A stretch of DNA of 64,000 bases, taken from positions 124,001-188,000 of the forward strand of contig WTXD01000036.1 of assembly GCA_022496205.1 (NCBI GenBank), given 5' to 3'. Numbering within the stretch: the stretch's first letter is position 1; every line of letters starts with the position of its first letter. The DNA comes from Gloeopeniophorella convolvens (Eukaryota > Basidiomycota > Agaricomycetes > Russulales). Positions 9,998 to 43,553 of this stretch are shown here, piece by piece. The notes under the pieces are model-generated. The model was not told the DNA's origin. It saw only the letters and a list, made by a program, of their open reading frames with translations, and did no database searches. The translations under genes were made by a program, and so were the position numbers.

Positions 9998-10423
9998 TAC
10001 TGCGGATGGAAGGCGGGAAGGTTCAATGTGCTCTGCGATGCGTTTTCTCTCTACAACTGTTGTTTCGTTCGATTGCATGACTGAATTTGTTGCTGCGAAT
10101 GTACTGCTGATATTTACGACGTGGACGACTTCTTACTACTGCTCTCGGACTGTCTCAATGGCATGATGACTGGTTTGCAGTTCTCAAGTACTCGCCTCGT
10201 GGACAAGGCTGGCTTGGGGCTGAAACCCTGGCACAAGATCGCGCGCGCGCGCTGCCCTGACTGTAGTCAAACACATGTTGGCTATGGCTGAATACCTGGC
10301 TGCACCAGGGTGCTATGTAAATTGCATATCTGGTTTCATCTGGTGCGCGACCTGCGTGGACGTTGTCAATTACAATGTTACAGCTGGCGACAAAACGATA
10401 AGTAGGCCCGCAAGCAGTTGCGT
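9998..10423. other. Intergenic flank of the mobile region
   Basis: This stretch holds the 3' end of the upstream gene and no further coding signal. It ends at the outer inverted repeat. An octamer CCCGCAAG at 10407-10414 recurs just outside the opposite repeat. Confidence 0.5.
10407..10414. repeat. Left copy of candidate 8-bp target-site duplication
   Basis: CCCGCAAG lies 9 bp outside the left 27-bp inverted repeat, in direct orientation with 25253-25260. Eight-base duplications are known from several cut-and-paste superfamilies. A chance match is possible. Confidence 0.35.
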
Positions 10424-10450
10424 ACTTTCCGCATAGTTTTCACACGCCGG
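10424..10450 (+). repeat. Left outer 27-bp inverted repeat
   Basis: It is identical to the reverse complement of 25218-25244. It is followed inward by sequence with telomere-like TTTAGGGCTGG..TAGGG words. Confidence 0.85.
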
Positions 10451-10731
10451 GCCGGTGTTCCCGATCAATTTCCGGCATTCCCCGAAGGTACTTTAGGTTT
10501 AGGGCTGGCTAGGGCTGACCAAATATATAGTTTTTATTGTATGGTATAATGTGAATGACAACACTTTTTTGAACCGAGTAATAACAATGACAAGCACTTT
10601 TTCACACCTGTAATTGAAGTGACAAATCATATTGTTATTAACTTTAAGTCTGTATCTACAGTATACTAGGGGGATGTTGTAGGGAAGGGAGGGAATCTGC
10701 CGCAAAGGAAGGAACTGACTTAGGAAGTAGA

Positions 10732-10753
10732 GCCACGCCCGTTAGAGCGCGGC
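10732..10753 (+). repeat. 22-bp motif copy 1 (GCCACGCCCGTTAGAGCGC-GGC)
   Basis: This is one of four copies of a GCC-n6-GT(C/T)AGAGCGC(A/G)GC motif; the others are at 10879-10900, 24205-24226 and 24324-24345, all on the same strand. Copy 1 and the copy at 24324 share about 70 bp of further similarity downstream, including CGCCACGTC. Confidence 0.6.
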
Positions 10754-11066
10754 GGGGAAGCGAGGAGGGGCGCGTCGGCGCGCCACGTCACGGCCGCGTC
10801 GCTGAGCGCAGGGAGTCGTCACGGCGATAGGGGTGGCGGTGAAAGAGTGGGTGGGCCGTCCCTGGGTGCAGTTATGTGGCCACAGTCGTCAGAGCGCAGC
10901 CGCGGCAGCCCGATGCAGTGCTTGAAGCCATGCGCACGGTCGTGAGGCGGCGGGGGCGGCAAGGTGAATGCAAGGCCGGGGACGCCGTCCTCGACCGAGG
11001 GAGTGGGGCTAGTCTCGGATCCAGCCGTTGTAGCGCCCAGTCAGGCACGCCTGCACAAGGTCGCTA

Positions 11067-11109
11067 CAACGTCTGGGGCATTTCGTCCAGGCACGGGGGC
11101 TCGGTGACA
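11067..11109 (+). repeat. Unit A left terminal inverted repeat
   Basis: It matches the reverse complement of 16980-17022 with about two mismatches, and more loosely both ends of unit B. It overlaps the inner arm of a 15-bp hairpin with 11021-11035. Confidence 0.8.
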
Positions 11110-11241
11110 GGGTGTCACATTCACATGACTTCACATGACTTCACCTGACTTCCCATCATCGCTTGTAATACATATTTTCTAATGTGGACACATCATTGTC
11201 AGCAAATATGTGTCAGAGTTCGGACCAGATGAGCCGGACCA

Positions 11242-14016
11242 ATGCAAAATGCCGAAGTCAGGTTGAATGGTGGACGCTTGCAGGCAACGCGTGCAAAAAT
11301 GCCCCGAGAAGTCCCTCAAATACGCTTCTCAGAAGACATTTTCGACTATGACTCAGACGATGATCCAGATTTTGTTCCTTGTGAGGACCTGGATGCGTCG
11401 GATGAGGAGACGGACGACATGGACATTGATTCAGACTCGGAATCTATCAACCCACCAATTTAGGAGGCCGCGAGGCGGGCTAGCAACCTTAGGAATCAAG
11501 GTAGAAGCTTGCTACCAAAAGTACGGGCAGTTTGCAAGCTTCTGACGGACCTGGACCTCAATATCGGCGACTTTCTCCATGCTTTGAGCTGGGGAGACCC
11601 GGAATGCATCGCGGATGATGTTGTTCGCTACCATAGGACCGCACTCTTCCAAAATGACTTGCTATTGGCCACGCTGCGTAATTGGAACAAGCCACCGCAT
11701 GTCCAAGAGCACCGAGGGACCGAGATTATGAAGACTTTTGCAGCAGAGTGTATTGTCGAGGAAACACAGGACGAAATGAAAGTGATCGCCCAACACTTTC
11801 ATGCGGACTCGGATCCCCTATCCCTACCTTCATTGACCTCCTTCAGCTTCTCTGATATCGCCGCAAAGCTTCAGAACGACGCACCTATCCTCTGGCGCAT
11901 CTTGAAGCTTGAAGAAGGCTGGGTGGAGTGCACGTCAGGCACGCCGAAACACGCACAAGACTCCGAAGAATGTGAGTTCTGTGGGTGAAATGTTTGTAGC
12001 CGGTGCTAAAATATTACAGGTTATAACTCACCTTCTTGGAATGCTCTCGTTCTGCCGTTCACATCACCGCAGTCGTCTCGCGGCACTGTGGGCAATCCAT
12101 CTCAAATCTTGTGGCCTCTCATCACGTGCTTTCGACGCGCTCCATGCCGCGGGACTCACCATGAGCGTCAAGTGGACTTCCGAGGCCTTCAAGAAGATTT
12201 CAAGCTGCGAGCTAGAGGCTGCACGGGTGTCAATGCAGAATCAAGTTTGTTTTTGGTCCTATGACAACGTCAACATCCCAAAACGGATATTCTCAATGCG
12301 GGTTGACAAAGAGAATCATTTTTACAGCGCGAGCGTGGGAACCGTCTGGGTGCTACCAGAATCCTTCACAGTTTCGCCGCAGATGGTCAGAGAGCATCAG
12401 CGGGTGCGTCGGGAGGGTGCAGATGAACATTTCAACCTCGGATCATTCCTTAGCGGCAAAGATGACGGAGGGGCGGCGGACTCACGCATGAAGGCACAGG
12501 CCAAACACCGGATCTTGCGGTTTCTACTTGAAAGCCCTGCATTCGGGGCATACGAGGGGCGCGACGACCCGATCCTAGCACCCCCACCACCTACAGATCA
12601 GCTTCCATGCGGAGTAGAGAATGCTATCAAGCAATTCATCCTCCATACCGCAGACATCGAGGAAGCAAGCTATGAAGGGAACGTGAAGGTAGTAGAAGAG
12701 TGGCTTCGACAGCTCAAGATGGATACCCTAGAGGAGAAGAAAGGATTGGCGGGGCGGCTCATTCCTATTGTCGGAGATCAACTCACCATTGATCGCCTTC
12801 GCAAGTTGGCCGGCTTCCGGCACGAAGACTACAACACTTACGAGCAGATGGACTACATCATCCCTGTCCTCGGATGGTTTCATCTCCTCGTTATGTTCAC
12901 CCACTCACTCTTAAAGCAGTATATTGGTACATCTGGCGGGATCGGCTTGCGGCGCGCGTTCGACCTGATGAATCGGAAGAACCTATCGAAAGCGCAAGTC
13001 AAAGGACCATTCTGGCATCATCTTGATGAAGCCCTGTGGCACGTTGTTGAAGCACTCATCCTTGCCAGCTGGCTGGAGGTCTCCGGGGCTGAGAAGCTTG
13101 AGGATCTTACCTCAAAATCACCGGGACAGCTGATCTTGCTTGCTGACCAGGTGCATGCCGAGTGCGCCTCCCGAACAGCCCTGCAGAAGATGAAACGTGG
13201 AAGAAAGGAGGAAATGGACGAATACCGCTATAACTCAGTTATGTTCCTGACAGATATTCTCGTCTACTGTGATCTGCGCGAGGCGATCAAGATCGGGGAC
13301 GTGGGCCGCATGGAGGATCTTCTCAAGCCGATCTTGCTTCGGTTTGCGGGTGGAGAAAACCCAAAGTACACGATTGAGGTTCTTGAGGTGGTACAAGGTC
13401 TAAAACGGGAGTGGACACCTGAGATCAGGTGCGTGCACAGTGCATCGTGGACGCACCACGAATCTCGCCGCCAAGCTGATCTTGCGACTGCTAGACATCT
13501 TGTTCGGAACCGTTGTTGGCTTGTCAACCGTTCTGGAAAGCGAGATGGGTTTGTGGCAACTGATCAAGCACAGGAGCATAACATTAGAGATATCAAGGTG
13601 CGCTTGAAGCTCGAGGTCGAAATGTCATACGTGCGTGACATACGTTATCTAATCAGGTTACGTATCGCTCCGTTGGGCCGGGTGCGATGCTAGAGCACTT
13701 GTCGAGCATCTCCCCGGGAATTCCAGTGTTCCGCGCGGTTGCGAAACACATGGCATGGCAGCATCAGAACGTGATATTGCGAGGCAGTCGCCATACAACA
13801 CCTGGCAAAGTCCAAGACGTCGAGCGCGAGATGAAAATAGCCCTGGAAGAAAAATGGTTTCGTCAGATCAATGGTCGGAAGTTGCGATCCGCAGACGACC
13901 GCGTGAAAGATATCGTGACGAAGGGGATACAGAACCTCTCGCAAAAAGGCGCGTTCAAACGCTGGTGGTTGGCACGATCCTTCAAACGGTCGTTGGAGGA
14001 AAAATGGCTAAAGTAG
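11242..14016 (+). pseudogene. DUF6589-domain protein, unit A (candidate transposase), degenerate
   Basis: Four exons by eye: 11242-11971, 12020-13428, 13495-13597 and 13657-14016, with the same four-exon plan as the copy at 21052-23762. The N-terminus is acidic (YDSDDDPDF, then DASDEETDDMDIDSDSES). The core carries SYDNVNIPKRIFSMR, a long helical part, IVGDQLTIDRLRKL, GWFHLLVMF and HHLDEALWHVVEA; the C-terminal part has NRSGKRDGFVATDQAQEHNI and ISPGIPVFRAVA. I know DUF6589 as an uncharacterised family of agaricomycetes. The spaced acidic residues (YDN, GDQLT, LDEALWH) would fit an RNase H-like transposase, but that is inference. Lesions: an in-frame TAG at 11461-11463 right after the acidic region, and a one-base insertion at about 11917 (the frame changes just before GWSARQARRNTHK). 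The rest is open. Confidence 0.7.
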
Positions 14017-14032
14017 TATATTACGTCCAGAC

Positions 14033-16775
14033 TCATGGCGCGTTCGGGGGATACGACGAATATACGACATGTGGCTGCGAAGAGGATGCTGAAAGAGGGG
14101 CGGGTTGATGGGAAACGTGCTGTGAGCTGTACTGGCTCGTCGAGGCCGGTCCAGTGGTGGTGGGATTCGTCGGCGCGGTGGGGTTTGCAAAGATCGGCCG
14201 GGGCTTGATACGTCGCGGCGGAACGGGGGCACTCGAAAGGGGGGTCTGATAGATATTGTAAGTGAATCAGCAGCGCGGAAGAGGTGGTAGTGCACGCACC
14301 ATAGCTGCAAGTCGTTTTGCCTCCTTCCTCTGCGCAGTCTCCTCATCCTTCGCCGCCTTCGCAGCTGCTTTCGCCGCGCGTTCCTCTGCCTTTGCGGCCT
14401 TCTTCCGCGCAGCTTCCTTGGCCTTTTGCGCTGCTGCGAGTTTACGCGCCGCTGCCGCCTCCCGCTTCCTCTCGGTCTCCTCGAGTTTCTGCTTCCTTTT
14501 GACCTCGGCCTCCTGCTGGCGTCGTGCAAGCTCGGCCTGCTTCTTCTGCGCCTCCTCCTCCTTGATTCAGGTCTTCTCTGCCTCCCGCTCGGCTTCAATC
14601 TTTCGGCGCTTGGCATCGTTTTCTGCCCGCACGCGCGCGTCTGCCTCGTTCGCGCGGTCTAGCAGCTCCTGGCCATGGTCCTCCAGCCACAACCAGTTGA
14701 CTGCTGCAGCGTTTCTGGAGGATTTGACGTCGTCGATGGTCTTCCAGCGGCCATGTGAGACAAATGCGGTGAGAACGCGGTCGGGAAGAAGTCCCTCGGC
14801 ACCCCAGGGACAGTGTGAGTAAGATGTCTCCCAGGTAGAGTCACGCCACTCGGTCAGTTCATCACGGACCTTCTTCCTAATCTCGCCGCGACGGATCCCA
14901 GACCCTTTTCCCAACGGACGCTTGCCAGCTTCGTTGAGTTCATCGCTCGGTGTAACGTCGTTATCAGACAGGTCCGATGGATCTAAATCCGGAGATGGAG
15001 ATCGGGATGCAAAGAGCTGAGAAATGGTGGTGGCGGGGGACTGCGGAGGCGATACGGCATCCACCATGGCGTGAGGGTCTTGGGTATCGAAAAGATCGCT
15101 GGTTGAGGGCGTGGGCAGGGGCGTGTGGGAAGGCGAAGTTGACCGCAGCTGCATGCCGGAAGTCACGTTGCCGCTGTTAGACGCCGGCTCGGCGGACCGC
15201 GAGTTCGAATCTAAGTCCTGTTGCGCGCAGTTATCACAACAACCGCCGGTAGGTGCTGGAAAACAGGTAAGACGTACGTTCGTTACTTTGAGACCCTACT
15301 TACCTTCGCACGGAACAGGGTTTCGAAAATGTCTGTCAGCAACATCGCGCCGGCAACCCATAGTTTCGATCCACTCCCGCAAGTCATCCTCCACCTCCTT
15401 CACATGTTTAACGGCCTCCCCTCGTTTCCTCTTTGATTTCCCCTTTTCCTGGAAGACTGTGGGTTGAACCAGCAGGTATGCCTTGGCTTGGCTTCCCCTT
15501 TGGCGTCCTGCACGCCCTGCGCACTGTAACCAAACACCAAGCGAGTCCGGCACCATGAATTGCACGACGAAATCAACGTTCGCAAGGTCACAGCCCTGAT
15601 TTTGCCACAGAAAGGTCAGTAACAACTCGCAGTAAAGGGTTTTCGATCTCACCATTCCGGCAGCTTCGCTCGCGAAGATGATATCAATATCGCCACGATT
15701 AAACTCGTCAAGCACTCGCAGCTTGCTCTCCTCCCCGCGACGCGAGTTGTAACACTTGACGCGGTCATGCAGGTGTGATGGAAGACGCATCACAAACCAA
15801 CGGCGCGCATGCATTGACAGGGAGATGTCGTCGAAGAACACGATGCCGCGCTCGAGTTTTCGATCGCACACAGGTAAGCTGCCCGGTATCAGGAATGACA
15901 ACGCCTGCAGATCCGACTTCCCCGCCTGCATGCGACGGACGCTCCAGAAGATATTCGGCTGATCGTTCCCAAGATTAAGGTGGAAGGTAGAGTCCTCTTG
16001 CATATGAACACATTTCCGGATCGCGGTAAGATCTTTTGGTGTTAGTGTCGCTGATGTGACTAGAAACGGCACTTTCGCTGGTACGAATGCCCGCAATGTT
16101 CCGATGGCAGTATATGCCTCTCGAAACTTGTCCCCCCAACGCGTGATGCAGTGAGCCTCGTCGATAATGAATGCGGCGATTTTTTGCGAGACTGATGGAT
16201 CCTGAATCGTTTTGCGGAATTCTGGGTGCCTCAAGCACATCTCGGGCGACGTTATCACGACCTGATAGACCCCCCGTTCGAATTGCTGCCATGATTTTAC
16301 GTGAGTCCTTGCGCACTGTCCCCAGAATACTAACACAAACCTTTCTCACAGTCTCATTATATGTTTGTCCATTCACGGCTTTCGTGCGCAGGCCCATCTG
16401 CAGAAATCGATGTTGCTTTGCGGTCATGTGCTGAAATCAGTGACTTGTACTCTGATGGTAATGTGACCGCACCTGATCTAATTCGAGAGCATTGAGCGGA
16501 GACAGGATGATTATCATCATGTCTGGTTTGACTAAGAGTGGAAGCACGAAGGGTAGGGTTTTCCCTGCACCTGTAGCTGCAATCACCTCGCAGTCTAGAC
16601 CGAGCAAGAGGCACTCAGCGACATCAAGCTGCCATTCGCGAGGAGAAATCTCTCCTTGCGACATTTTTTCGCACGCGTCAGACATGCACTTCCGTAGTTC
16701 AGCAGGCTTGTGGTCAGCCCCTGCTGCATCCCGAGCCTGTTGTAGCACCCTGTTGGTTGCGGGTGTGGCCGGCAT
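14033..16775 (-). CDS. RecQ-type DNA helicase, unit A
   Basis: Six exons by eye: 16775-16473, 16430-16341, 16285-15653, 15595-15304, 15255-14300 and 14245-14033. All superfamily 2 motifs are present: a Q-like REWQLDVAE, Walker A AATGAGKT, DEAH in FIIDEAHCITRWG, SAT in LVTSATLTP, then IVFFDD, IIFASEAAGM, and QCAGRAGR. A split CCDNC follows, as in the RecQ zinc-binding region. Next come a Ser/Pro linker, a conserved EWRDSTWETSYSHCPWGAEGL block shared with unit B, a Lys/Glu/Ala coiled coil, and a Pro/Ser tail of about 70 residues. RecQ enzymes unwind DNA 3' to 5', using ATP. One in-frame TGA at 14567-14569 lies in the coiled coil and the same frame continues beyond it, so the protein is either about 668 residues, or 828 if the stop is an error. 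The ATG at 16775 is chosen because no ATG lies upstream in frame. It resembles fungal subtelomeric RecQ-like helicases. Confidence 0.75.
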
Positions 16776-17042
16776 TGATGCATGCTCTGCCAGGAAGAAC
16801 TGAACGCTGCTTGAGGGACTAGAATGACGATTTTGCACCCAGCAACCATGACCGCGTCGGCAATGGTTGCAATTGTTTCAGGTTGAGTTAGACTTGGTCA
16901 GTCATAGCAGGTCCTAGCACACGTCGAGGGCGCGTTGAGTCATGTGATTAAGTTACTAAGCGCACGCGCTGTGACTGCTTGTCACCGAGCCCCCGTGCCT
17001 GGACCAAATGCCCCAGACGCTGTGGAGGAGGTAGTCTCGTTC

Positions 17043-17200
17043 CCAGACCTTCACAGAGCGGAATCACCATGGCTTTGACCCCCTACGGGGGTATCTGTTT
17101 GATGGGATCGATGGACGGGGACAGTGATTGGATGATCTGCTTTTGAATCTGAGCTCGTTCCTGAGAAAAGCCATGGTAATTCCGCTCTGTGAAGGTCTGG
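17043..17200. repeat. Inverted repeat joining units A and B (34-bp arms)
   Basis: Positions 17043-17076 pair with 17167-17200 with one mismatch, leaving a 90-bp loop. The right arm runs into the left end of unit B. The outer part (TAGTCTCG..CCCAGACC) recurs outside other unit ends, so this looks like a specific end structure and not a random palindrome. Confidence 0.75.
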
Positions 17201-17415
17201 TGCACTTCGTATAGGACCCCCCCCATCGGTGACAATGCGTGACGCTTACATCAGTTCTCTGTGCCGTGCACATGACCAGACGCGTCTCAGAACGCGGTGG
17301 TTACGCACACATTGTTGCGTAAATCTCTGTTTGGGACTAAGCAAATTTGCGGGATCAACATGTATGGACTCTGCCTCCGCAACCTGAGACTGTCCCGTGC
17401 CACTGCAGATCCTCA

Positions 17416-20400
17416 ATGCCTAAGCCCGGCCCTTCTACAAAAGGTAGGGCTCAATCAAAAAAAGGCCAAGTGCAAGCCCACACGGCACCACGAGACGCGC
17501 AACCCTTGGTGAATCATCGAACCGAGTGAACCCGGTCGTCGAAATTGCTCAACGACGCGCAGCGGAACACTGGCGACAAGTATGACTCAGCTGCAGCTCG
17601 GAAGAAGATGGAAGAGGAGTGTTTGAGACGAACCGATGGCAGGATCAAGCCAGAGAGCTGGCAATTGGATATTGCTGAGTGTTTGATCCTGGGCATCGAC
17701 TGTGAAGTCATTGCTGCTACTGGGGCTGGGAAGACCATACCTTTCTTCTTGCCCCTATTCTATCAGCCGAACAAGGAGATGATTATCATATCTCCTCTGA
17801 CTGCTCTCGAGAATGATCAGGTAAGCGCAGAGGCTCGCGTCTGGCAAATGGCTTACCATGCGATATGGTGGTGGTGCGGCGTGGTGTGCGGTGTGTAGGA
17901 ACGGCGTTTTCGGGAAGTCGGTCTTCGAGCAAAGGCTGTAAACAAAGAGTCATATAATGCCGAGGTCCGAGAAGTGAGTTTCAAACCATTGGCTGCGAAC
18001 GTGAGGACTGAGCGATTCGCACCAGGACCTCAAGCATGGAAAGTACCAAGTGATACTCACCTCTCCTGAGATGTGCCTCAAGCACCCTGAATTCCGCTCG
18101 GCACTAGAGGCACCTTCAAAACGGCAAAGGATCAAGGCATTCTTGATAGACGAGGCCCATTGTATAACACAGTGGGGCGAAAGCTTTCGGCGCGCATACA
18201 GTGAACTTGGAACGTTGCGTGCCATCGTTTCGAATCGGATACCATTCCTCGTGACCTCCGCAACACTAACGCCAGCGGACCTGGTCGAAATCCGAAAATC
18301 AGTGCATATGCAGCGACATACGTCGTTTCACCTGAATCTAGGCAACGACCGCCCGAACATTGAATGGCATGTGCATCATATGAAAGCTGCAAAATCAGAC
18401 CTCGATGCGCTCAAGTTTCTCCTACCAGATCACAGTACCCCGAAGCCTTACAGACGCTCGAGCATGGTGTCATATTCTTCGATGACATCACCTTGTCGAT
18501 GGAGGCGTTGCGGTGGTTTGGCGATCACCTTCCGGAGCACCTTCGGGGTCGGGTTGCATGCTATAACGCAATGCGCGGGGACGAGAGCAAAGCCACTGTG
18601 ATTGAAGACTTCAATAGTGGGGCTCTGGACATCTTGCTTGCGAGTGAGGCTGCTGGAATGGTGTGTGGGGACAGTAACCCGCATACTTGTGTAGGCTCAC
18701 CTATGATTCATATACAGGGATGTGACTTGTCGAATGTAGAGTTTGTTGTGCAGTTCTTGGTGCCCAAGTCACTCTCTGTGTGGATGCAACGCGCTGGTCG
18801 AGCCGGACGAGGCAGAGGCAGCCGTGCGAGGGCATACCTCCTGGTTCAACCAACTGTCTTTCAGGAGAAAAATAAGAAAAACGCACCCAAAGGGGGTGAA
18901 GTCATTTACAGCAAGGAGATTGAAGATGGTCTCCGCGAGTGGATAGAGACAACTGGGTGCCGTCGCGACGTTGCAGACAGTCACTTCAACAATCCCGGGC
19001 CCCGGAAGCGTGGGTTCGCATATTCCCGTGCTCAGAAGTCGGTGCTGACATCCGCTTACACCATAGCGCCTGTTGGGCTGTGTTGCGACAACTGCGCCGC
19101 TATGGCATCTATCCTCGACGCCTCTTATTCTCCCACACCTCCAAGCCGACCTTCGACCCCACATCATGACCGAAACCTTTCCATCATCACTCACCCTACT
19201 CCCAGCAAAACTCGTAATGCTGCCGGTAAACGCGCAATGCGTGAGCCCCAGGATCCTGAAGTTACGGCGCTTGGGCCCGCAAAGCGGCAAGGAGAGGTGC
19301 TGGAGGCAGTGAAAGACGCCCTCAATGAATGGCGCCAAAGTACGTGGTTGAAAAGTTACTCAACGCGGCCATGGGGCGCTGAAGGCTTGATGTCCGACGA
19401 CATATTGGACGGATTTGCGACATACGCACGCTGGAGGAAGCCTGACGATGTCAGGCAATCCGAACAGTGCCCCGTGGCCGCCAATTGGTGGGCCTTGAAT
19501 AAGCACGGTGCGGAAGTCCTCAAAAAGGTGCTCGAGGTTCACACCGTAGAAACCGATAAGCACGAGGCAGCTAAGCGTCAACGTCTTGAAGAGAAAAATG
19601 AGGCCAATCGCTTGCAACGAGAAGCAAAAAAACAGGACAAGGCGGAGGCCCGTGAACAAGAGAAACGCGAATCGGATGAAAGGAAAGCAAAGGAGCGCGA
19701 GGAGAAGAAGAATCAAAAGGACGCTGAAAAGGCAGAAAAGGCGGAACACAAGCGCAAGGCCGCACAACAGGAAGCCGAGAGGAAACGCTTGATCAAGGAA
19801 GCTGACTTTTTGCAGGAACTGGTATGTTTATTCTTAGTACTCGCGAGGCGTTTTGCTTGCTGATGTTGTTGCTTCGTTTCCTGCGGCTGCGGCAGAGGTC
19901 TCAGGCTGCGCTCAGACCCCTCGCTCCTCGGCCTGCACCTCGGCCTATGTACCGCGGGGCTGTCAGTGCCGGCTCTCAGGTTGCTTCATCGTCACTGCTA
20001 CCTGCGCACGGCGGGCTTTCCCAACACCAATACGATCCGCCAACCCCCATCCAGTCAAGACGCCAACTCCCCTGGCCCCGTCCAGCCTACCGCGGCACCC
20101 ACGCGACCCCTCAGTCTCTCGAGGCAGGGGCTAACGCCGCAGGGCCAGTGCCGGCTGTACTTCCTTCTACGTTTACGCCCCCTGCCCGCATCACTTCCCC
20201 ACTCTCGTTTCGTGACATGTCGATGGACGTCACCCAGGACATGTTCAATAACGCGTCCCAGTGGCCCGGCACGGGTGAGGCCGGTCCCTCGCTCGCGTTC
20301 TCCGATGTGCCAATGGACATGTCTCAGAATGCGTTCCATGACATGCCGTGGCCCAGCGCTGGCGTGAGCCAATTCGGACCCCCACCCGCGATCTCTGACG

Positions 20401-20993
20401 TGCCGACGGACATCTCTCAGGATGCCTTTTGTGATGTGCCAGCATGGCTCACTGTCAATGCGAGTCAAGCCGCCGGGTTTAACCAGACTTCAGGCATGTA
20501 TGAAGGTGAGCGTTTCCAGTCCGATTTGCATAGTTCATTCTCGAACCTCATGCGTGCCCAACCGTTAAGCAGCCCCCATCAATTATCTGTCCACACCAGC
20601 GTAGCACCAGTCTCTGAGCGCATCACACTACCACACCCCGGTCTCGCAGCCTCCTGGGCATAAGCTCCAGTATACGCCCGGGGGTGATCTGCCTCCATTT
20701 CCGCCCTCACGCGCTCCACCACCGACTCCCCAACACCTACTTGCACCCACCGCAAGTGCCGGGCCACCCTCCGCGCCACTGTATTGGCCTGCGCAGTTTG
20801 CGCCGACTCAAACTCCGCCGGCCCGGCCCTCTTTCAGGCCTATGATTTTCGCATCGCAGCCACCACAGTCCCCCGCGAGGACTCCGACAATGTACGCTCT
20901 TCCGCCTCCGCCCGCGTGGGCTCCACCTCCTCGCGCTACGATACCGGTACTTGCACGCAACGCTGGAATACCCAAGCGGCCACACTTCTAGAT
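17416..20993 (+). pseudogene. RecQ-type DNA helicase, unit B, degenerate
   Basis: This is a paralog of the unit A helicase with the same motifs: ESWQLDIAE, ATGAGKT, FLIDEAHCITQWG, LVTSATLTP, VIFFDD, LLASEAAGM, QRAGRAGR, CCDNC, then EWRQSTWLKSYSTRPWGAEGL and a long Lys/Glu coiled coil. Exon borders are clear at 17820/17899, 17973/18026, 18660/18718 and 19821/19896. The tail is longer than in unit A: Pro-rich, with three degenerate repeats around 20205-20450 (SFRDMSMDVTQDMF, AFSDVPMDMSQNAF, AISDVPTDISQDAF) and a last open stretch ending at 20993. Lesions: an in-frame TGA at 17527-17529 near the N-terminus, and a frame change at about 18440 just before the EHGVIFFDD motif, at a CCCC run. The joins at about 20505-20690 are unresolved. 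Some lesions could be sequence errors, but two in one gene favour decay. Confidence 0.7.
20205..20450 (+). repeat. Three degenerate repeats of about 20 residues in the helicase B tail
   Basis: FRDMSMDVTQDMF, FSDVPMDMSQNAF and ISDVPTDISQDAF are spaced about 35 residues apart. The motif is absent from the shorter tail of the unit A helicase. Confidence 0.75.
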
Positions 20994-21051
20994 AGCTAAT
21001 GTCCGTACAGTAAGTTATCTATAACATAACCAGCATGCGCTCGTCTGTGGA

Positions 21052-23762
21052 CTATGCTTCATTTCGTGTTGCCGCCCATCGCTCAGAGCTCTCGCGCGGG
21101 AAGTTCCGACCGTTCCACCATCTTTTCATCAGGCCCTGGGTAAGTGAATTAACCCCAGTATTGATTGCATCGTCAGCGTGATCTTTCGCGTGCGCAATGG
21201 TGCGTCCATCTTCATGTGAGAACCACCCTTCGTCCAGAATCACCTCCATCATCTTCTTCACATCTGCATCTTTTCCCGGCACAGTATGTGCCGTACCACG
21301 AGAGAGGATCAGAGTGTGCTGGGACTTCATGTGAGCAGCAACTGCGCGGAAAACGGGGATTCCAGGTGAGATTTTTGAGAGTTGTTCGAGCGTCGCCGCT
21401 GGCCTGATTGACCGGTATGTAACCTGCCGAATCCGTCGTTCAGCGTTTCCACTCTGCGCATGAACCATTGGCTTACTTTGATGTCTTTTATGTTCTGCTC
21501 CTGGGCCTGGTCTGTTGGCAAGAACCCATCACGCTTTCCGGAGCGGTTTATCAACCAGCAGTGCCGCCGCACAAGGTCCCTGGGTCGAAGTTAGTAAGCA
21601 AGATCTGATCTTGTAGCATGGCGAGATGTTTGCTCACTTGATCTCTTGTGGCCACTCTCGTTTGAGACCTTGAATCAACTCCAGAATTTCGATTGAGTAC
21701 TTGGGGTGGCTTGTCCCCGCAAATCGGAAAAGGAGGATCGGTAAGAGATCCTCCATGCGTCCAACATCGCCCGTTTTGATGGCTTCTCGAAGGTGAAGTA
21801 AGGAAGCACGTCGGTAAGAAACATAGTTGAACGGAATCGGACTTCATCCATGGTATGTGCGGGTGCGTTCTTCATCCGATAGAGGGCTCGACGTGACGCG
21901 CATTGCTCGTAGATGTCGCTTGCTATTGCTAGCAGCTCCTCTGGGGACTTTACGAGGAGTGGTGACACATCCGTAGCGTTTGGGCCTGCTGTTCTCGTCC
22001 AACAGGCGAGAATGTGAGCCTCACCAATGTGCCAGAGTGCCTCATCGAGGTGATGCCAGAAAGGGCCCTTCGTGAGCGTCTTCTGCAAGCCCTTGCGCTT
22101 CAGCAAGTCAAATGCACGCCGCAAGCCGTATCCTGCTGACGTCCCTTCATATTGCCCCAAGATTGATGCCGCGAACGCAAAGAGGAGGTGCAGCCAACCG
22201 AAAACAGGAAGGACCCAGTCAAGACGTTCGTACCCATTGATGTCCTTATGCCGGTACCGCATGAGACCCCGAAGACGCTCCACTGTGAGTTGGTCTCCAA
22301 TAAACGCGATGACGAAGTCGGTTGCCAGGCGAAGCTTCTCTCCGCTGAGACCCAGCTGACGAAGCCATTCCTCCACCGCCTGCCGATTACCGTCATAGCT
22401 TGCTTCCTCGATATCTGCGGTATACAACATGAACTGCTTGGTAGTGTGTTCCGGACCAGCCGGGAGCTGATCAGTGGGGGGTGGTGGCGACAGGATGGGG
22501 TGATCTTTGTGGGAATAGGACTCGAATGCCGGCGCGTCAAGTAGGAACCGCAAAATTCGATGCTTTGCGCTTGCTGCAATACGAGCGTCCGCAGCGTCTT
22601 GTGCATCACCATCTAGGAGGTCCTCGATGTTGAATGGCTCTGTCGCTCCCTCCCTCCGCGCCACCCGAAACTCATGACCCAGATCTTCAGGCAAATGGAC
22701 ATATTCTGGGAGAACCCACAGCGTAGCTGCGCACGCGCTATAGAACTGGTTTTGGTTTGTTGTTCTCATCGAAAATACGCGTTTCGGGATGTTCACGTTG
22801 TCATACGACAGGGTCCATGTGCGCTGTTTGACTGCCACGACCGCACTCTCCATCTGCCTATCCGAGATCGTTTTGAATGCATGTTGGTCCATCGAATGCT
22901 CATCGCGAGCCCGGTTGCATGCACGGCATCAAATGCCCTCGACGAAAGGCCACATGACTTGAGGTAAATCGCCCAAAGAGCCGCAAGGCGGCAAGAGTGG
23001 TGGGATCGCGTGTATGACAACATACTAATGACATTCATGATGACCTAGAGCACAAATCGTTATATCAGCATCAACGCAACACAATCCGAATAGTAACGAA
23101 GCACTCACGTTGTCCGGTGACTTATCGGTGTTCCGTTTTGCCTGTGACGTGCTCCAAGCTGCCTCGTGAAGGACGTTCCACAGCACAGGAGCAGCTTTGG
23201 CAAGGTCTTTCGAGAGCTCCACAAAATTGAGTGATGTGAGTGTCTCTAAAGACAACGGATCATCTGGCCTTGCGAGGATTGAAGCCACTTTCCGCATCTC
23301 CGCACGGATCTTCTGCTTCACGCATATCCTGGCAAACTCCTCCATGCGGACCTTGCTTTTGTTCTTTTTTCCACTAGGAGGCTTCCACCAACGCTTTAGT
23401 AGCCGAGGGAACTCTGTGCTATTGAAGAATCCAGCGCGTGCAAAGCGTACTTGACTGTCACGAGTGCACTCCGCATCCCCCCAGCAGAGCGCGTTCATGA
23501 ACTTGGCAACATCCCATCCCACTGAGTGGATGCAGTTGAGCACCTTTTTGACCTTGTCACATGCTTCCGGACCCAAGGTGCGATTGGGACGCTGCGCGTG
23601 TTGGAGAGGGGGGTTGCGCGGCTGCTTGTCAAGGTCCGGACCATCTGTGTTGTCTCCGGAGGACTCAAAGCCTTCGTCCACTGACTCGTCTGGGTCATAT
23701 TCGTCCTCGTTCCCAAAAAAATCTCGAAAGAATTCAGAAAGTTCATTGGTAGGGATAGTCAT
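21052..23762 (-). pseudogene. DUF6589-domain protein, unit B, degenerate
   Basis: Four exons on the minus strand: 23762-23109, 23044-21638, 21579-21477 and 21423-21052, with the same phases and places as in unit A. The N-terminus is acidic (EDEYDPDESVDEGFES). The core has SYDNVNIPKRVFSMR, FIGDQLTVERLRGL, GWLHLLFAF and HHLDEALWHIGEA; the end has NRSGKRDGFLPTDQAQEQN and ISPGIPVFRAVA. Two frame changes break it. One is at about 22890, between MSIRWT and the in-homology QHAFKTISDRQ; the other is at about 21795, where PYF should run on into LREAIKTGDVGRMEDLL in another frame. Function is unknown; by position and company it is the best candidate for the transposase of this unit. The start ATG at 23762 precedes the acidic region directly. 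Confidence 0.7.
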
Positions 23763-23984
23763 AGTGTGATTGGGACGGGGAACGAGTTGCGAGAAGTGAG
23801 TCGCGCGCGAGAGAGTAGTTGCAGTGATGACGACAATGATCGCACCAAGTCGGCCAAATCAATTACTCAATTCTGCTTACAATCAGTCGTACAATACAGC
23901 TGATGTGATAGTTGATGGGATGGCACATGGTGTGTGACAAGGTGTGACTGATTGACCGAGGGGGGGTCGCCTATACGAAATACC

Positions 23985-24026
23985 CCAGACGTTGCAGAGC
24001 AGATCGATCGGCTCTGCAACGTCTGG
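23985..24026. repeat. Perfect 16-bp hairpin at the right end of unit B
   Basis: Arm 23985-24000 (CCAGACGTTGCAGAGC) pairs perfectly with 24011-24026 across a 10-bp spacer. The inner arm is part of the terminal repeat. Equivalent arms exist at the left ends of units A and B. Confidence 0.85.
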
Positions 24027-24038
24027 AACCGAGACTAT

Positions 24039-24176
24039 GGAGGAGGTTGTGCAAGGGGTGGAGGGGGGCGGCATCTTCGGCATCAAAACTTTATTCCCGT
24101 AGCCAATGAGATTCGATTATTTTCCGGCTTCCCCCGCTGGTTCAGCTGCCCCCCTCCCCCCTTGCACACCTCCTCC
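24039..24176. repeat. Long imperfect inverted repeat outside unit B
   Basis: Arm 24039-24069 (starting GGAGGAGGTTGTGCAAGG) pairs with 24148-24176 with few mismatches, across a loop of about 78 bp. It is followed by GGAACGAGACTA, which also occurs near the hairpin at 24026. Confidence 0.7.
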
Positions 24177-24194
24177 ACAGCGGCGGGAACGAGA

Positions 24195-24647
24195 CTAGAG
24201 TGGGGCCACGCTCGTCAGAGCGCAGCGGTGGTTCGGCGCGGCGGGCAACGGCGCGCGGGGTAGCGGCGGGGGTGGCGAGTCGAAAACGAGAACGGTACGA
24301 CCGTCCTCGTCTGGGAAGATGGAGCCGTGTTCGTCAGAGCGCGGCAGGGGAATGGGGATGCGCGCGTCAGCACGCCACGTCGCCGTCGCGTCGCCGCGCG
24401 AAGGAGCTCGCCGCGGTGGCACGTTCGTGTCGCCCCGGCTCGGGATGCTGCCGCGCGACGGAAATTGAGGCGGCGGCGGCGTCGTCGTGATGAGTTGGGG
24501 TGTGGGCGCAGGAACGGGCGCACAGCCGCTGTTTTCGTTGACGGAACCGCACGGCTGCAGCTGAACCTGCTGCGCCGGCGCCTTGGGGTCGTCGCGGTGC
24601 AGTGCGGGGCCGTGCGATGCGAATTGCGCGAGCGTGTACCTGATCAA
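24195..24647 (-). other. Proline-rich open frame between unit B and the outer repeat
   Basis: The frame is open for about 150 codons and contains RYTLAQFASHGPALHRDD and, after a Pro-rich part, TWRADARIPIPLPRSDEHG. A shorter remnant reading TWRADAPLLASPPRSNGRG lies on the same strand near 10720-10810 on the other side of the twin units. Conservation of protein words suggests an old coding sequence repeated on both flanks. I do not recognise it and it may be a fragment. Confidence 0.3.
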
Positions 24648-24977
24648 TCGAGCATGAAAATTGTTTGTTTGTAGCTGTCAACTCCCGGCCTCCATACGTG
24701 TGGGGTCCAAGGCGGGGTAGGGGGCGGGGGCGCGGACGACGTCGGCGCTGGCATCGCTTCGGCTCGCTTTCGGCCGCGGCACTTGGGCTGCGATGGAGGG
24801 GGAGGGAGATCTGGGTTCGCTGCGCAGGCACGCGCAGCGCGATTGTTGGCAACTGACTGCGCGTCTCTCGGTTCTCGGTTCGGCGCGCTCGACTTGCGTG
24901 ACGTGTGGTCTCCGCCAATGAGGCGCTGATGGCGATCTCGTTTGTCGTCATTTCGGGTAGCGACGGAAATAAAGAGG

Positions 24978-25050
24978 GGGATGAGGGGGGGATGAGGATG
25001 AGGACGAGGATGAGGACGAGGGCGAGGACGAGGGCGAGGACGAGGAGGAC
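24978..25050. repeat. GAGGAC/GATGAG-type minisatellite
   Basis: This is a run of hexamer-like GATGAGGACGAGG units in non-coding DNA near the right edge of the mobile region. Confidence 0.8.
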
Positions 25051-25217
25051 TGTGTCCATTGCTTGCCACAGACACAGACACTCTGAAGGGACACACAGGA
25101 GTAATATTATTTGAGTCATCAGTAATAGTGATTACATACAGAACGAGAAAACACGTTGCAAAAGAAAAAGAATAAGTCGGGCTTCGAAATAGGAACGGGG
25201 AGTCCGGACCGCTCTTT

Positions 25218-25244
25218 CCGGCGTGTGAAAACTATGCGGAAAGT
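25218..25244 (-). repeat. Right outer 27-bp inverted repeat
   Basis: It is the exact reverse complement of 10424-10450. CCCGCAAG at 25253-25260 follows 8 bases outside. Farther out, AACCCTAGCC and GTAACCCTAATG are telomere-like words. Confidence 0.85.
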
Positions 25245-25260
25245 CAAAGACTCCCGCAAG

Positions 25261-26800
25261 CGCGGGCCGGGCCGGGGTTTGTGGAGCGAACCCTAGCCTA
25301 CCAAATTTGTAACCCTAATGACGTCACAGGTCGTACAGCGAGGTCGCGACGACAGCACCCTGTTCTTTCCTCTCATCCATCACCCCGCGTTTTTACGAAT
25401 CTTCGAGAATGCTTAGTAGCTTATCATCCGTGTAGTGGCCTTGAGGGTCCAAGCAAGGTTTTTCTCGAAAATTTGTCGACAAGTGGCCAATGGCTGGGCA
25501 GTGGCTGGGGAAAGATGGGGCAAAGATGGGGTGTTCGCTCGCCGCTGTCGCGAGAGCACGAAATGCCACGATTCCGCTCCACAGAGCCCTCGCGCGCTGG
25601 CTTATCGGTTTGTCGCTAGTACACCGTAAGTGGTGACGTCGATCACGGGAGATACTGACGCGTTCTTGAAATACCTTGTCGTAACACATCTAGAGTCGAG
25701 CTTCACCACAACTCTGCGGACCTCTGGTATGCTCCAATCAGATCACGAATACCCCGCAAACCAATAGAAACGCCGTAGCGAACTCAGCGAGAGCTTCGAG
25801 TTGTATGCGCCGGCCTCAGTAAAAAATGCTACGTTGATGAACGGTCGTCACATGGCGCTCGGCCGCGGTCAGCGAGGAGGTTGCGATGACCCACAGTTTA
25901 TATTTTGCTCACGATAACACAAGAAGCCTTCACAGCTGGTGGAACCATTGCGATTTTCACAAATGCTGGTGTAGAGTCGACGGAGCGCCCTCGGAAGATG
26001 CTTTCCACGCGACCCTCAGCAAAGTCTGCCTTCATGCCGACTTAGTACATTGGGAAGACTTGCACCCTATGCAGAACACTGATCCTCGCACGGCGGCGCA
26101 CCACGAGCTCACCAGAGCCGTCTAAGAGCGACTGCCCCTCGCGATCCTGCTGGCAGGCAGCTTCCCCGCGCCGTAAGTGACGGCCCCTTGCCAAGCGGGC
26201 TCCACAAAACAGGACAACTGACCTCAAGGCCGCCGCGCATGATAAGATTGGGGAGCCGCGTATAGGCTGCGACACATTCTGATGCGGAGATAGGGCCTGC
26301 GGAACTGCGAAACGTTGCCTGGCCACGCCCAGGCGCCCATAGCCCACCCACGTAGCCGCCCGCCCGCGCGCCCACGAAGAGTGCAAAGGCGGCCGCGAGA
26401 ACCAGAATAGTAGCTCGAGTGAGCAGAAGGCGCGAGGCGGGGCGCGTGTGCGTCCTCGCCCATTATGGTTCTCGATACCGGCGCTAGTTTTCTCGTGAGC
26501 GAGGGTGGACTTCCCAGGCATATGCGAGCGGATCACCCGGCACAGTGGGGTGCAGCAAACTTGCCTAGGGCTTCTTGACCTGGACCTATGAATATCGGGG
26601 GTTGGCTTTATTACCTTTGTCTATAAAGAGAATATACTTTGTGAGTGCGAAGTTGATTGTGGCAAGGACAAGTTCCCGGGCGATTACCCTCACCGCAACC
26701 CCTTGGACCACTGTTAATATCATTCGTCGTGCACCATGAAGCGTGCTATGGTCGAGCTTTGATGAGCAGTCCTGTGCGCCTAGACCTTCGAGGGTGCTTG
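25261..26800. other. No supported gene
   Basis: A weak minus-strand frame near 26230-26460 includes a hydrophobic stretch (ILVLAAAFALFVGARAGGY), but it lacks a start, clear splice sites and a paralog. Nothing else in this segment can be supported. Confidence 0.4.
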
Positions 26801-26804
26801 CAGA

Positions 26805-29290
26805 ATGTTAGTGCTGAGAATGTGCCGAGAATATTTCCCTGACCAGACGCCTTGCATTTCCATGCGGTCAGAAGGAGAAGAGAAGAGCTTGAGTTCCGCG
26901 GACTCTGCGTGCTTTGGCCGTCCGGGTGAAGCCGAAGAGAGTCGCGAGGCTCCCACGAACGGCTTCGAAAGACAAAACAACGGAAATGAATCGATGATGA
27001 TTCATGATTTCATGATTTCACCCTCAGCCTTTGACCATCAGCGTTAACGACATGCAGCGATATCTGCCCGCTCTTCCGTCGACGTGTCAGCCGTTTCGAA
27101 CCACCTCTCATGGCTCTCGTCTTTTGGCGCGCGACCAAGCATACCGGAGCGTCGGCGTGCCCACTGGGTCGCCCTGAGCCATCGCTTGCCCACTCTTCCA
27201 TGCATCCTGCATTTCGTGAGTCCTGTCTGTCTATCATGCACAGCTCGCAGATAGTGCCTGCGGCATGACCGCGTGGGATATGCTTCCTTGGTCCATGATA
27301 CCCTCAAGCCGCCTCTCAGGCCTGTCGCAGACACTAGCGTCTTTCTTGGGGCATGGCGGGAGCGCAGCGGTGGTCACAGGGCGCCCCGAGTTACGAGGCA
27401 TCGAAGGACTTCGAGGCTAGGCTGGCATGTGGTGCCATTGACGTCCACAAACAAAATTCGCGTCCCCGGCCATCTGCCAGCGCGCGATCGGCCAATGGCC
27501 TTTCATCGTCGAGCGTATCGGCAGCCGCGCAACGGGGCCTCGTCTTTCGATAACAACTCTCTGCCGTGATGACTGCGGTTCGCCCGCTTAACCACCCACC
27601 ACCTCTTCGCCCTCCAAACGGGAACATTCATTCTCGCCCGCCAACCGTGCATCCTGCCCTGACAGATGGCTAGCGAAGTACCCACGCCAACTGTCAGCTA
27701 TAAGACGGTCGCTGCCTCTGCTGCTTTCCTCTTGTCTCTTGCCGTCTAGACCCGCACTTTGCCTGCGCTAGAACTTGCATCGTCAACAGCATGCGTCTCT
27801 TCCGTGTCTTCTCCACCCTCGGCTTGCTCTTCGGGGCCCACGCGTCCACCCTTGACTCGCGGGCCCCAGCTCCGCATCCTCTGGATAAGCGCGCCCTCAT
27901 CGACGTGTGTGCGTTCCTCGACGTAGAGCTCGAGGTCCCGCTCCTCGGAATCCCCGTGGCCGTTGGCCTCCTTGGTACGTCCCACCCTGTCTCCCGCCCC
28001 GTCTTCAGAAGGAACTCCATGTGCTAACGAGATGAACCGGAAGATGTTTGTTTGTGTCTGTCGGCCCTCCCTCTCTTCTTGGAAACCAACGTTGTCGCTA
28101 TCCTTGGTGTCAGCCTCATCGGCGAAGACGCTCTCCTCGCAATCTTGACCGACCTGGTACGCACACAACAGTACTGCATACTGGGTTCCGAGCGTATCTG
28201 AATCAATCTATTGCAGATTGTTGGCGCCGCCCCGAAAGCGAAGTGCACGTTCCCCGACCACTCCAGCCCCTTGTGTCTCGGCAACAGCCCGTGTGGCTTC
28301 AGCTGCATAGATGGCTTCACGCCCTCGCCCGCGTCTCACCCGACGACCTGCATCTGCAAGGCGCCGAGCGTCGTCTGCAACGGCATTTGCGGGCCCGCCA
28401 AGGCGTGCCCGTCGAGCAAGCCGGTCGCCAAGCGCTGGCTCGGCAGTGGCTCGTGCGGCGAGATGGGCCCCGGTTGGGATGCGTGCGGCATCTATGGTGG
28501 CGGCGCGCGCGCCTGGGAGTGCGTCAACACTGCGCGTGACCTCGAGAGTTGTATGTACCACACCACTTTATCTCGTTGTACTTTCGCGCTGACACGCGTA
28601 CAGGTGGTGGCTGCGTCGTCCCGCTTACTGCATACTCGCCCATCGGCCAGGACTGTACCGCGCTTCCCGGCGTTGCGGACGTCGGGTGTGTCGCTGGTGG
28701 GTGCGCAGTGCGGCGCTGCCTTTCTGGCTACGCCGTCGCCCCCGACGGTAGCCGCTGCATCCCAACGCGTAGCGCGATTCCACAGCCTCCTATGGGCGCA
28801 GAAGTCCCCGCGCGTGTCTTCGGGCTGGAGCACGTTCCCCTGAAGGCTTAATTGCGCGGCGCCGTCACCGTCGTCGCTCATGGCCACTGAGCGTTCAAGC
28901 ACGAATATGCGTTCAGGCAGGAATATCGATATTGAACACTGTCGGGCAGATTGCTACTAGGATTCGGCTGGGATGCGTCTCCTCACCCTATGTTCACCCC
29001 AGACTCAGTTTACCTTTTTTATCTCTCGCCGTGCGTTGCTCGTGCCCGTGGTAGTTTAGAACTCACCCCACTACCATTGCGGCCGCCAATCGACCGGTGA
29101 CGCGCCCGCGTCGTACGAGTACATACTCTCTCGAAATGGACTTATGGTGTCATCGCGCATCTGTACTTAACGTGATAATCCACGCCCACGATCTTCGGCC
29201 CCGCGTGCGCGCCCACCCGTGCCAATCAAACATTCACGAGCTGATCTGGCCGCGCGCAAATTCAAATGCATCGTTGTTCTCATCACGCGC
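26805..29290 (+). repeat. Tandem segmental duplication, copy 1
   Basis: Sequence from about 26805 to 29290 recurs at about 29690-32195 in direct orientation, offset 2.87-2.92 kb. Matching landmarks include the GACTCTGCGTGCTT..GCCGA(A/G)GAGAGT segment, the whole CPL1-like gene, and a 3' flank with CGGGCAGATT(A/G)CTACTAGG. Small indels separate the copies. Confidence 0.9.
27791..28851 (+). CDS. CPL1/PriA-like secreted cysteine-rich protein, copy 1
   Basis: The signal peptide MRLFRVFSTLGLLFGAHA is followed by a short linker with a likely KR processing site (PLDKRALIDVC), a hydrophobic helix (AILGVSLIGEDALLAILTDL), and a cysteine-rich domain: CTFPDHSSPLC, CGFSCIDGF, CICKAPSVVCNGICGPAKAC, then CVVPLTAYSPIGQDC and CAVRRCLSGYAV. 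This C-terminal cysteine pattern is that of the CPL1-like domain of PriA-type fungal secreted proteins; the molecular role is not established. Exons: 27791-27974, about 28032-28156, 28217-28550 and 28604-28851. Exon 2 differs from copy 2. One base is missing relative to the paralog near 28025, and reading is kept only if splicing uses the later acceptor at 28031 (giving DEPEDVCLCLSALP). If that site is not used, the copy is frameshifted. Confidence 0.75.
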
Positions 29291-29689
29291 CAGCGGCAGC
29301 TCAATGCGGTACTGTGAAAATTTACAGCCAGTCATATTGCGCCTCCCTGCAGCGATGTGTGAAAGGATAGCAACCTTGTGCTTCGACACCTGAATGATGA
29401 TGTGCCGCACCTTTCTCGAGACAAACTGTTTATTTTTCGCAGCGGTTGAATGAGTGAAGCATCAAATTCGAGAGATGCACCAGGAGAAGGGGCCCGAGTC
29501 CGGCTTCGATCTCGACTTCCTCTAAGCACACTTAGATCCCAACAAATCAAAACTATGGTGTTTCAAGCGCACCAGAAACATCCATGAGAACAGTACTAGC
29601 TAGTTAGTGTATCCTTGCTTGAATATGTATCCTTTACTTTTGCAGGGGAGATCCAATGAGACGAAGTGGATGGCATTTGGGAAGTGTTG

Positions 29690-42260: not shown

Positions 42261-42327
42261 GATAGGAATATTGTCCTAGTATACTTCCCAACGGGTATGT
42301 TCCTGTTACTTGCAAGCCCGGCAAGCG

Positions 42328-43423: not shown

Positions 43424-43553
43424 GTCTCCGCTGAGATCTGAGGGTCAGTGAGAGGGGTTGCAATCTGACATCACAAACCTGGCGCGGAAATTATGTGAGA
43501 TTTCGGTTGGCTCCGGTGGCTCCGGCCACATTTGAAAAATGACTTGCGGATTG

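What the first reader, a model, noticed from the sequence alone, without database searches (positions are those of the whole stretch)
10424..25244. A two-gene element family pairing a RecQ-type helicase with a DUF6589 protein, present twice in mirror order
Seen directly: two units with the same pair of convergent genes, the same intron plan, matching 43-bp inverted ends (four copies), and stops only 16 and 58 bp apart. Known: RecQ-like helicases are common at fungal subtelomeres, and DUF6589 is an uncharacterised basidiomycete family. Inferred: the helicase and DUF6589 protein are the two components of one DNA transposon, with DUF6589 as transposase. I know of no described transposon with this gene pair.
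Basis: partly seen in the sequence, partly recalled or inferred. Interest (0 to 1): 0.92.

Follow-up and report, generated by a model that had tools for sequence, protein, structure and literature searches.

The report
Nested AcademH-type transposons in a fungus
The two look-alike gene pairs are two related cut-and-paste DNA transposons, each carrying a probable transposase and a RecQ-like helicase, one inserted inside the other and both inside a third element; they fit a described kind of transposon (AcademH), and they suggest that the uncharacterised protein family DUF6589 is its transposase.

Summary
The gene pairs are real, but the layout was misread. The region is a three-layer nest: a 1.64-kb nonautonomous MULE (10416-25252), interrupted by DUF6589/RecQ transposon A (11010-24197), itself interrupted by transposon B (17032-24037). 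Each layer has an exact 9-bp target-site duplication, and copies lacking the insert exist for A's and for B's site.

All 9 copies with both ends found have 9-bp duplications; of 15 further opposed pairs of the same ends (0.1-2.8 kb apart), 11 have 9 bp and one 10 bp. A convergent helicase lies beside 16 of 21 DUF6589 loci in this genome, very probably Gloeopeniophorella convolvens. In other species, 30 of 120 listed helicases share their contig length with a DUF6589 protein's contig.

Helicase plus 9- or 10-bp duplications is what is reported for AcademH (second-hand). So the kind is known; the useful result is that DUF6589 is very probably the transposase. Homology to Academ transposases could not be tested: no reference was held and structure prediction was off.

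The parts
10407..10415 (.). left 9-bp target-site duplication CCCGCAAGC of the outer MULE (right copy 25253-25261)
   Evidence: flanks printed, read by eye
10416..25252 (.). outer element: nonautonomous MULE, 1640 bp without its insert; perfect TIR core 10424-10450 / 25218-25244
   Evidence: 99.76% identical over 1640 bp to the C79 copy, which lacks unit A and has its own 9-bp duplication; TIR intervals of the same family on C366, C368 and C382 hold MULE (PF10551) matches
11001..11009 (.). left 9-bp target-site duplication GAGTGGGGC of unit A (right copy 24198-24206)
11010..24197 (+). unit A: DUF6589/RecQ transposon, 6173 bp without unit B and one copy of B's duplication; ends TAGTCTCG...CGAGACTA
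   Evidence: 98.2-99.4% identical to copies on C163, C161 and C251, each with its own 9-bp duplication
11299..14016 (+). unit A DUF6589 gene (probable DDE transposase); this copy has an early nonsense codon and a frame change
   Evidence: PF20231 E=2.9e-101; HMM placement 11359-14016; ATG and comparison with sister copies; stop
14189..16811 (-). unit A RecQ-like helicase gene (HMM-covered part)
   Evidence: PF00270 and PF00271; RecQ family TIGR00614 E=1.6e-27
   Evidence: 71-bp query found at 9 places in the genome, the window's two included
17023..17031 (.). left 9-bp target-site duplication TGGAGGAGG of unit B (right copy 24038-24046)
   Evidence: unduplicated site in C163 and C251
17032..24037 (-). 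unit B: DUF6589/RecQ transposon, 7006 bp, nested in unit A
   Evidence: 19 mismatches in 7003 aligned bases plus 6 gap columns against the C323 copy; ends and duplication
17473..19755 (+). unit B RecQ-like helicase gene (HMM-covered part; frame change near 18440, not seen in the C323 copy)
21052..23630 (-). unit B DUF6589 gene (HMM-covered part plus stop)
   Evidence: PF20231 E=3.2e-69 on its main open stretch
17043..17200 (.). unit B helicase-side end: 34-bp inverted repeat (97% complementary, 90 nt between arms) of the CCAGACCTT...AAGGTCTGG motif
   Evidence: I4
23985..24026 (.). unit B transposase-side end: inverted repeat of the CCAGACGTTGCAGAGC motif
   Evidence: read by eye; self-inverted match 23985-24026 in the C323 copy

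Best explanation
The two units are autonomous-type DNA transposons of one lineage, best placed in AcademH. Each carries two convergent genes: a DUF6589 protein, inferred to be the DDE transposase, and a RecQ-family helicase. The transposase is inferred to recognise the TAGTCTCG terminus together with CAACGTCTGG-type motifs inside each end, to cut the element out, and to join it to target strands cut 9 bp apart, which gives the 9-bp duplication. The helicase is inferred to help by unwinding or repairing DNA at the ends or the donor site. Shown: ends, duplications, sites without insert, nesting order, gene pairing, and many further pairs of the same ends. Inferred: catalysis, motif recognition, the helicase's step, and Academ kinship of the transposase. 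The window copies are nested: MULE first, A into the MULE, B into A. Both A and B look decayed.
For: Exact 9-bp duplications in 9 of 9 DUF6589 copies with both ends found; of 15 further TAGTCTCG-ended pairs chosen by eye from the listed part, 11 exact 9 bp and 1 exact 10 bp; of 210 mismatched flank pairings 2 reach 8 of 9, both between the duplicate loci L031 and L032. Copies without insert for A's site (C79, 1640 bp at 99.76%) and B's site (C163, C251; C161 by BLAST continuity). Convergent helicase at 16 of 21 DUF6589 loci. Distances of the two proteins correlate over 35 pairs, r=0.86, 0 of 5000 permutations as high. D309, D478 and E720 (P0004 numbering) are kept in 108 of 112, 118 of 118 and 77 of 81 non-gap rows; D309 and D478 also in the divergent copies C4, C2, C342b and C356. 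AcademH makes 9- or 10-bp duplications and encodes a helicase (PMC10045372). DEAD and Helicase_C are among the domains listed for AcademH, KolobokH and Helitron (PMC10799480); both are found here, and in 4 of 5 relatives they alone pass the Pfam cut-off, the fifth adding ResIII.
Against: DUF6589 was never compared with a known Academ transposase: none is held, nor is the defining paper. No fold could be predicted; sequence finds no usable solved relative and no second Pfam family beyond scattered weak matches. The triad is one choice: ten other acidic positions are also over 90% conserved (D266, E439, E562, D623, D635, E687, D716, D725, D781, D812), and at E720 C2 and C342b have a gap and C4's aligned E lies past a stop. 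A 9-bp duplication is also made by MULEs, as the outer element here shows. 5 of 21 DUF6589 loci show no helicase: 2 end at the contig edge, 3 do not (C4, C10, C105). Equal contig length is not proof of adjacency except on short contigs. The distance correlation would also arise from shared host descent. 3 of the 15 end pairs have no exact duplication as scored, and three divergent TIR-bounded pairs (C342b, C334, C356) have none.
Confidence: 0.85

Rival explanations
1. A helicase-carrying transposon lineage separate from Academ: DUF6589 is a DDE transposase of its own superfamily that acquired a RecQ helicase independently.
For: No other Pfam family matches more than 2 of 60 DUF6589 members, even at E up to 10; no paper in the held library contains the word DUF6589; Academ homology untested.
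Against: Helicase partner plus 9- or 10-bp duplications match the published description of AcademH; AcademH is reported as low-copy in Basidiomycota.
Confidence: 0.1
2. KolobokH: Kolobok transposons with a RecQ helicase, reported only from fungi.
For: RecQ helicase and fungal host (PMC9587614, passages).
Against: [quoted passage not shown] the duplications are 9 bp of varied sequence, not the TTAA that I recall for Kolobok.
Confidence: 0.02
3. The whole 14.8-kb block is one composite transposon with two gene pairs that moves as a unit between the outer TIRs.
For: Perfect 27-bp outer TIRs and a 9-bp duplication enclose both pairs.
Against: The outer TIRs belong to a MULE family with a 1.64-kb copy lacking the pairs; A and B each have their own ends, duplications and separate copies elsewhere.
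Confidence: 0.02
4. Subtelomeric RecQ-like helicase genes with DUF6589 as a host neighbour, not a transposon.
Against: Precise ends, duplications and sites without insert at many loci.
Confidence: 0.01

Closest known systems
AcademH (Academ superfamily; Kojima 2020, Mob DNA 11:15, known here only second-hand)
   Same: encodes a helicase; 9- or 10-bp duplications; reported in Basidiomycota
   Different: nothing tested differs, but transposase homology is untested; a link to the Pfam name DUF6589 was not found in the held library
AcademX
   Same: same superfamily in the literature
   Different: encodes a nuclease, not a helicase, and makes 3- or 4-bp duplications
KolobokH
   Same: RecQ helicase, fungal
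   Different: [quoted passage not shown] different duplication (TTAA, recalled)
MULE (outer element only)
   Same: 9-bp duplications; intervals between the same TIRs elsewhere hold PF10551 matches
   Different: the outer copy itself is 1.64 kb and none of the 33 listed PF10551 matches lies in it

Membership tests
AcademH | encodes a helicase besides the transposase | tested here: met
   convergent RecQ-like helicase at 16 of 21 DUF6589 loci
AcademH | 9- or 10-bp target-site duplications (PMC10045372) | tested here: met
   9 of 9 two-ended copies exactly 9 bp; of 15 further end pairs 11 at 9 bp, 1 at 10 bp, 3 not exact as scored
AcademH | transposase homologous to Academ transposases | not testable with these tools
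   no Academ reference sequence held; defining paper not held; Pfam gives DUF6589 only
AcademH | DDD/E catalytic core in an RNase H-like fold | tested here: inconclusive
   conserved D309, D478, E720 among other conserved acidic positions; fold prediction switched off
[quoted passage not shown]
   9-bp duplications of varied sequence; separate convergent genes
AcademX | 3- or 4-bp duplications | tested here: not met
MULE (for units A and B) | MULE transposase domain PF10551 | tested here: not met
   not among the 25 families shown (of 28) for 60 DUF6589 members; no PF10551 match on the window's contig C290 among 33 (counts are lower bounds)
MULE (for the outer element) | TIRs shared with intervals holding PF10551 and a 9-bp duplication | tested here: met
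RecQ family core (helicase) | RecQ-type helicase core | tested here: met
   TIGR00614 (RecQ family) is the best model for all five helicase sequences scanned, but each is below its cut-off of 219.8 bits; best solved relatives of P0113 are RecQ, BLM, RECQ1 and WRN
RecQ with accessory domains (BLM/RecQ type; accessory, not in every RecQ protein, recalled) | RQC and HRDC domains | tested here: not met
   0 of 5 relatives scanned show them in Pfam at E up to 0.01

The most novel reading that the evidence does not exclude
DUF6589 defines a transposase superfamily distinct from Academ, with its own RecQ helicase partner, that arrived at the same 9-bp staggered insertion independently, so helicase partnership evolved repeatedly in eukaryotic cut-and-paste transposons.
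Probability: 0.1. Interest if true: 0.6.

Novelty: new member of a known kind. Interest (0 to 1): 0.4.

Why it matters
It gives a probable function to an uncharacterised Pfam family (DUF6589) whose fungal members are mostly deposited as hypothetical proteins, so such genes, and the RecQ-like helicases paired with them, can be recognised as transposon genes. It supplies precise termini, sites without insert and many short pairs of the same ends, which makes transposition directly testable. What a helicase does in cut-and-paste transposition is an open question that this family could address.

Tried and rejected
Composite transposon and mirror-image duplication: rejected, because both units have separate copies, ends and sites without insert. 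KolobokH, AcademX and MULE as the home of units A and B: see membership table. E562 as third catalytic residue: conserved in 112 of 119 rows but not in the divergent copies C4 (D), C342b and C356, whereas E720 has a counterpart in C356 and C332. Structure route: prediction switched off, so no fold search was run. Solved-structure sequence searches for DUF6589 gave nothing usable. No 'Academ' label stands in the names shown for the 111 rows. Divergent DUF6589 loci: a scan for TIR plus duplication found only C2 convincing (9 bp, GACAAACGG, TIR 56 bp at 93%; control with reversed right flank 0 of 9 loci); C342b has a 175-column TIR at 82%, C334 and C356 a 27-bp TIR, all three without a duplication; C332 begins at its contig edge and shows no TIR. 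A phage-collection search found nothing and is uninformative.

Slip: the joined unit A sequence carries 9 stray bases of unit B at the joint, so its length there (6182) should be 6173, the right-end offset 169 is 9 too large, and the gap columns that involve it include those 9; mismatch counts and the reading of the ends are unaffected.
Full report
WHERE. The window is contig C290:124001-188000 of a 36.7-Mb assembly in 404 contigs. Its contig C68 has the length (541944) of the contig of P0039, a partial DUF6589 protein named for Gloeopeniophorella convolvens, and 501 of 501 residues of P0039 are covered by the translation of that contig end. So the host is very probably this Russulales fungus (taxonomy).

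OBSERVATION. Both gene pairs are real. Unit A has DUF6589 on + (11.3-14.0 kb) and a RecQ-like helicase on - (14.2-16.8 kb); unit B has the helicase on + (17.5-19.8 kb) and DUF6589 on - (21.05-23.6 kb). The units' proteins are 53% (DUF6589, over 372 residues) and 60% (helicase, over 188) identical, so they are two families of one lineage rather than recent duplicates of each other.

TRUE ENDS. BLAST of the region against the other DUF6589 loci fetched shows that copies on C163, C161 and C251 match about 11009-17032 and then continue directly with 24035-24197, while a copy on C323 matches 17029-24037 at 99.6%. The ends are TAGTCTCG...CGAGACTA, with exact 9-bp duplications: unit A GAGTGGGGC, unit B TGGAGGAGG. 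Thus B is inserted in A. C163 and C251 show the unoccupied site for B with one copy of TGGAGGAGG.

THIRD LAYER. Leaving A out, the outer flanks form a 1640-bp element 99.76% identical to a copy on C79; the window copy has duplication CCCGCAAGC, the C79 copy GACATGGAG. Its TIR core occurs 11 times in the genome at up to 3 mismatches, against 0 for the reversed control. TIR-bounded intervals on C366, C368 and C382 contain MULE domain (PF10551) matches. So the outer layer is a nonautonomous MULE, and the finding's coordinates are its TIRs.

GENOME-WIDE. The 34 exon matches of PF20231 fall at 21 loci. At 16 of 21 a helicase lies beside the gene and convergent. Of the other five, C68 and C88 are cut by the contig end on the helicase side, and C4, C10 and C105 show none in the stretch examined. 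C334 and C356 share a flank and may be one insertion. Nine copies have both TAGTCTCG ends, and all nine have exact 9-bp duplications; C374 and C342 (82 kb) show only one end. The end pattern has 197 places at up to 2 mismatches, against 22 for the reversed control. From the listed part I chose 15 opposed pairs by eye and fetched them: 11 exact 9 bp, 1 exact 10 bp, 1 with 7 of 9, and 2 without as scored; one of these two, L036, has a 9-bp duplication if its end is moved by one base. Two of the 11 repeat the flanks of others (L031/L032; L042-43/L044-45, by eye), so 9 are independent. In 210 mismatched pairings of flanks 2 reach 8 of 9, both between L031 and L032. A divergent pair on C2 (helicase 31% identical) has quite different 56-bp TIRs (CAGGCTCC...) but also a 9-bp duplication; C342b, C334 and C356 have TIRs but no duplication.

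OTHER SPECIES. One search lists 111 DUF6589 relatives of unit A (8000 candidates scored); the named genera are, as I recall them, Agaricomycetes. One search lists the best 120 of 5926 helicase relatives of P0113, itself included. The script compared lengths only; by eye the species names agree in all 30. Short contigs (5312, 6277 and 9273 bases) and locus tags (PAXINDRAFT_12087/12088; EVG20_g10494/g10496) show close proximity in four cases; the rest show only the same contig. Distances of the two proteins over 35 pairs (30 plus 5 from this genome) correlate at r=0.86, 0 of 5000 permutations as high, and 24 of 35 share the nearest neighbour. This is what one inherited unit would give, but host descent also contributes.

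PROTEINS. All 60 DUF6589 members scanned match DUF6589 and no other Pfam family in more than 2 of 60; P0004 matches nothing in NCBIfam and no usable solved structure. In an alignment of 111 relatives plus 11 own copies, D309 (SYDNVNIP), D478 (GDQLT) and E720 (QEHNI) are kept in 108 of 112, 118 of 118 and 77 of 81 rows with a residue there. Ten other acidic positions also exceed 90%. I propose these three as the DDE triad because of their motifs and because D309 and D478 persist in the divergent copies C4, C2, C342b and C356, and E720 in C356 and C332 (inference; C2 and C342b have a gap at E720, and C4's aligned E lies past a stop). The helicase scores best to the RecQ family in NCBIfam, below that family's cut-off, and to RecQ, BLM, RECQ1 and WRN among solved structures, without RQC or HRDC matches.

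MECHANISM. Inferred from anatomy: the transposase binds TAGTCTCG and the CAACGTCTGG motif found inside both ends of all 7 copies examined (offset 43-57 at the transposase side, about 130-194 at the helicase side, at 8 of 10 matches or better). An inverted copy at offset 11 is present at both ends of B, C323 and C57, at one end of A and C163, and absent in C235 and C168. The element would be excised and inserted with a 9-bp stagger, and the short end pairs would be moved in trans. The helicase's step (unwinding of ends or donor repair) is a guess supported only by its regular presence.

KNOWN OR NEW. PMC10045372 (passages) states that AcademH makes 9- or 10-bp duplications and AcademX 3- or 4-bp, and relates this to helicase versus nuclease. 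PMC10799480 (passages) lists DEAD and Helicase_C among the domains of AcademH, KolobokH and Helitron and calls AcademH low-copy in Basidiomycota. PMC8290104 (passages) noticed putative nonautonomous Academ elements in the mushroom Marasmius oreades. PMC9587614 (passages) places the RecQ helicase of KolobokH downstream of its transposase domain. The defining paper (Kojima 2020) was seen only as a title in reference lists. The kind is therefore known. In the held library the word DUF6589 occurs in 0 papers, so the DUF6589-AcademH link may be unrecorded there, but Repbase and most subscription journals could not be consulted.

STATE OF THE WINDOW COPIES. Unit A's DUF6589 gene has a nonsense codon absent from its three sister copies, and its helicase tail has an in-frame stop. 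Unit B's helicase and DUF6589 frames change in places. Private changes among the four A-type copies are mostly at CpG: 15 of 21, 12 of 15, 71 of 89 and 7 of 9, as expected from methylation and deamination.

VERDICT. A real transposon family whose copies are recent by identity, best filed as AcademH with the transposase-homology test outstanding. Interest is moderate: a likely function for DUF6589 and a clean nest, but not a new kind.

Noticed in passing
window 27167-31960, 40878-45528, 51258-56386, 58078-62293: Four blocks of direct repeats (77-95% alike in the families shown, spacings about 2.9, 3.8, 4.5 and 3.2 kb), probably tandem gene duplications, follow the transposon nest.
   Followed up: no
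L020 2229-9124 (C2): A divergent DUF6589/helicase element with unrelated 56-bp TIRs (CAGGCTCC...) and a 9-bp duplication GACAAACGG.
   Followed up: partly
L021 1434-8237 (C342); L023 2663-8641 and L024 1670-7649 (C334, C356): Further DUF6589/helicase pairs bounded by other TIR types but without a recognisable duplication.
   Followed up: partly
C366:115813-126316: A 10.5-kb interval between MULE TIRs of the outer-element family, far longer than the 3.2-kb intervals on C368 and C382, perhaps holding another nested insertion.
   Followed up: no
L042-L047 (C22, C223, C349): 1.6- to 2.8-kb intervals with TAGTCTCG ends and 9-bp duplications; C22 and C223 have the same flanks in opposite orientation. 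Internal content not read.
   Followed up: partly
unit A copies (window, C163, C161, C251): Private substitutions are mostly at CpG (105 of 134), nearly all C-to-T or G-to-A, suggesting methylation-driven decay.
   Followed up: partly
L013 2072-2095 (C235): One terminus is doubled in tandem (TAGTCTCGTTCCCGCC twice); the 9-bp duplication fits the outer one.
   Followed up: no
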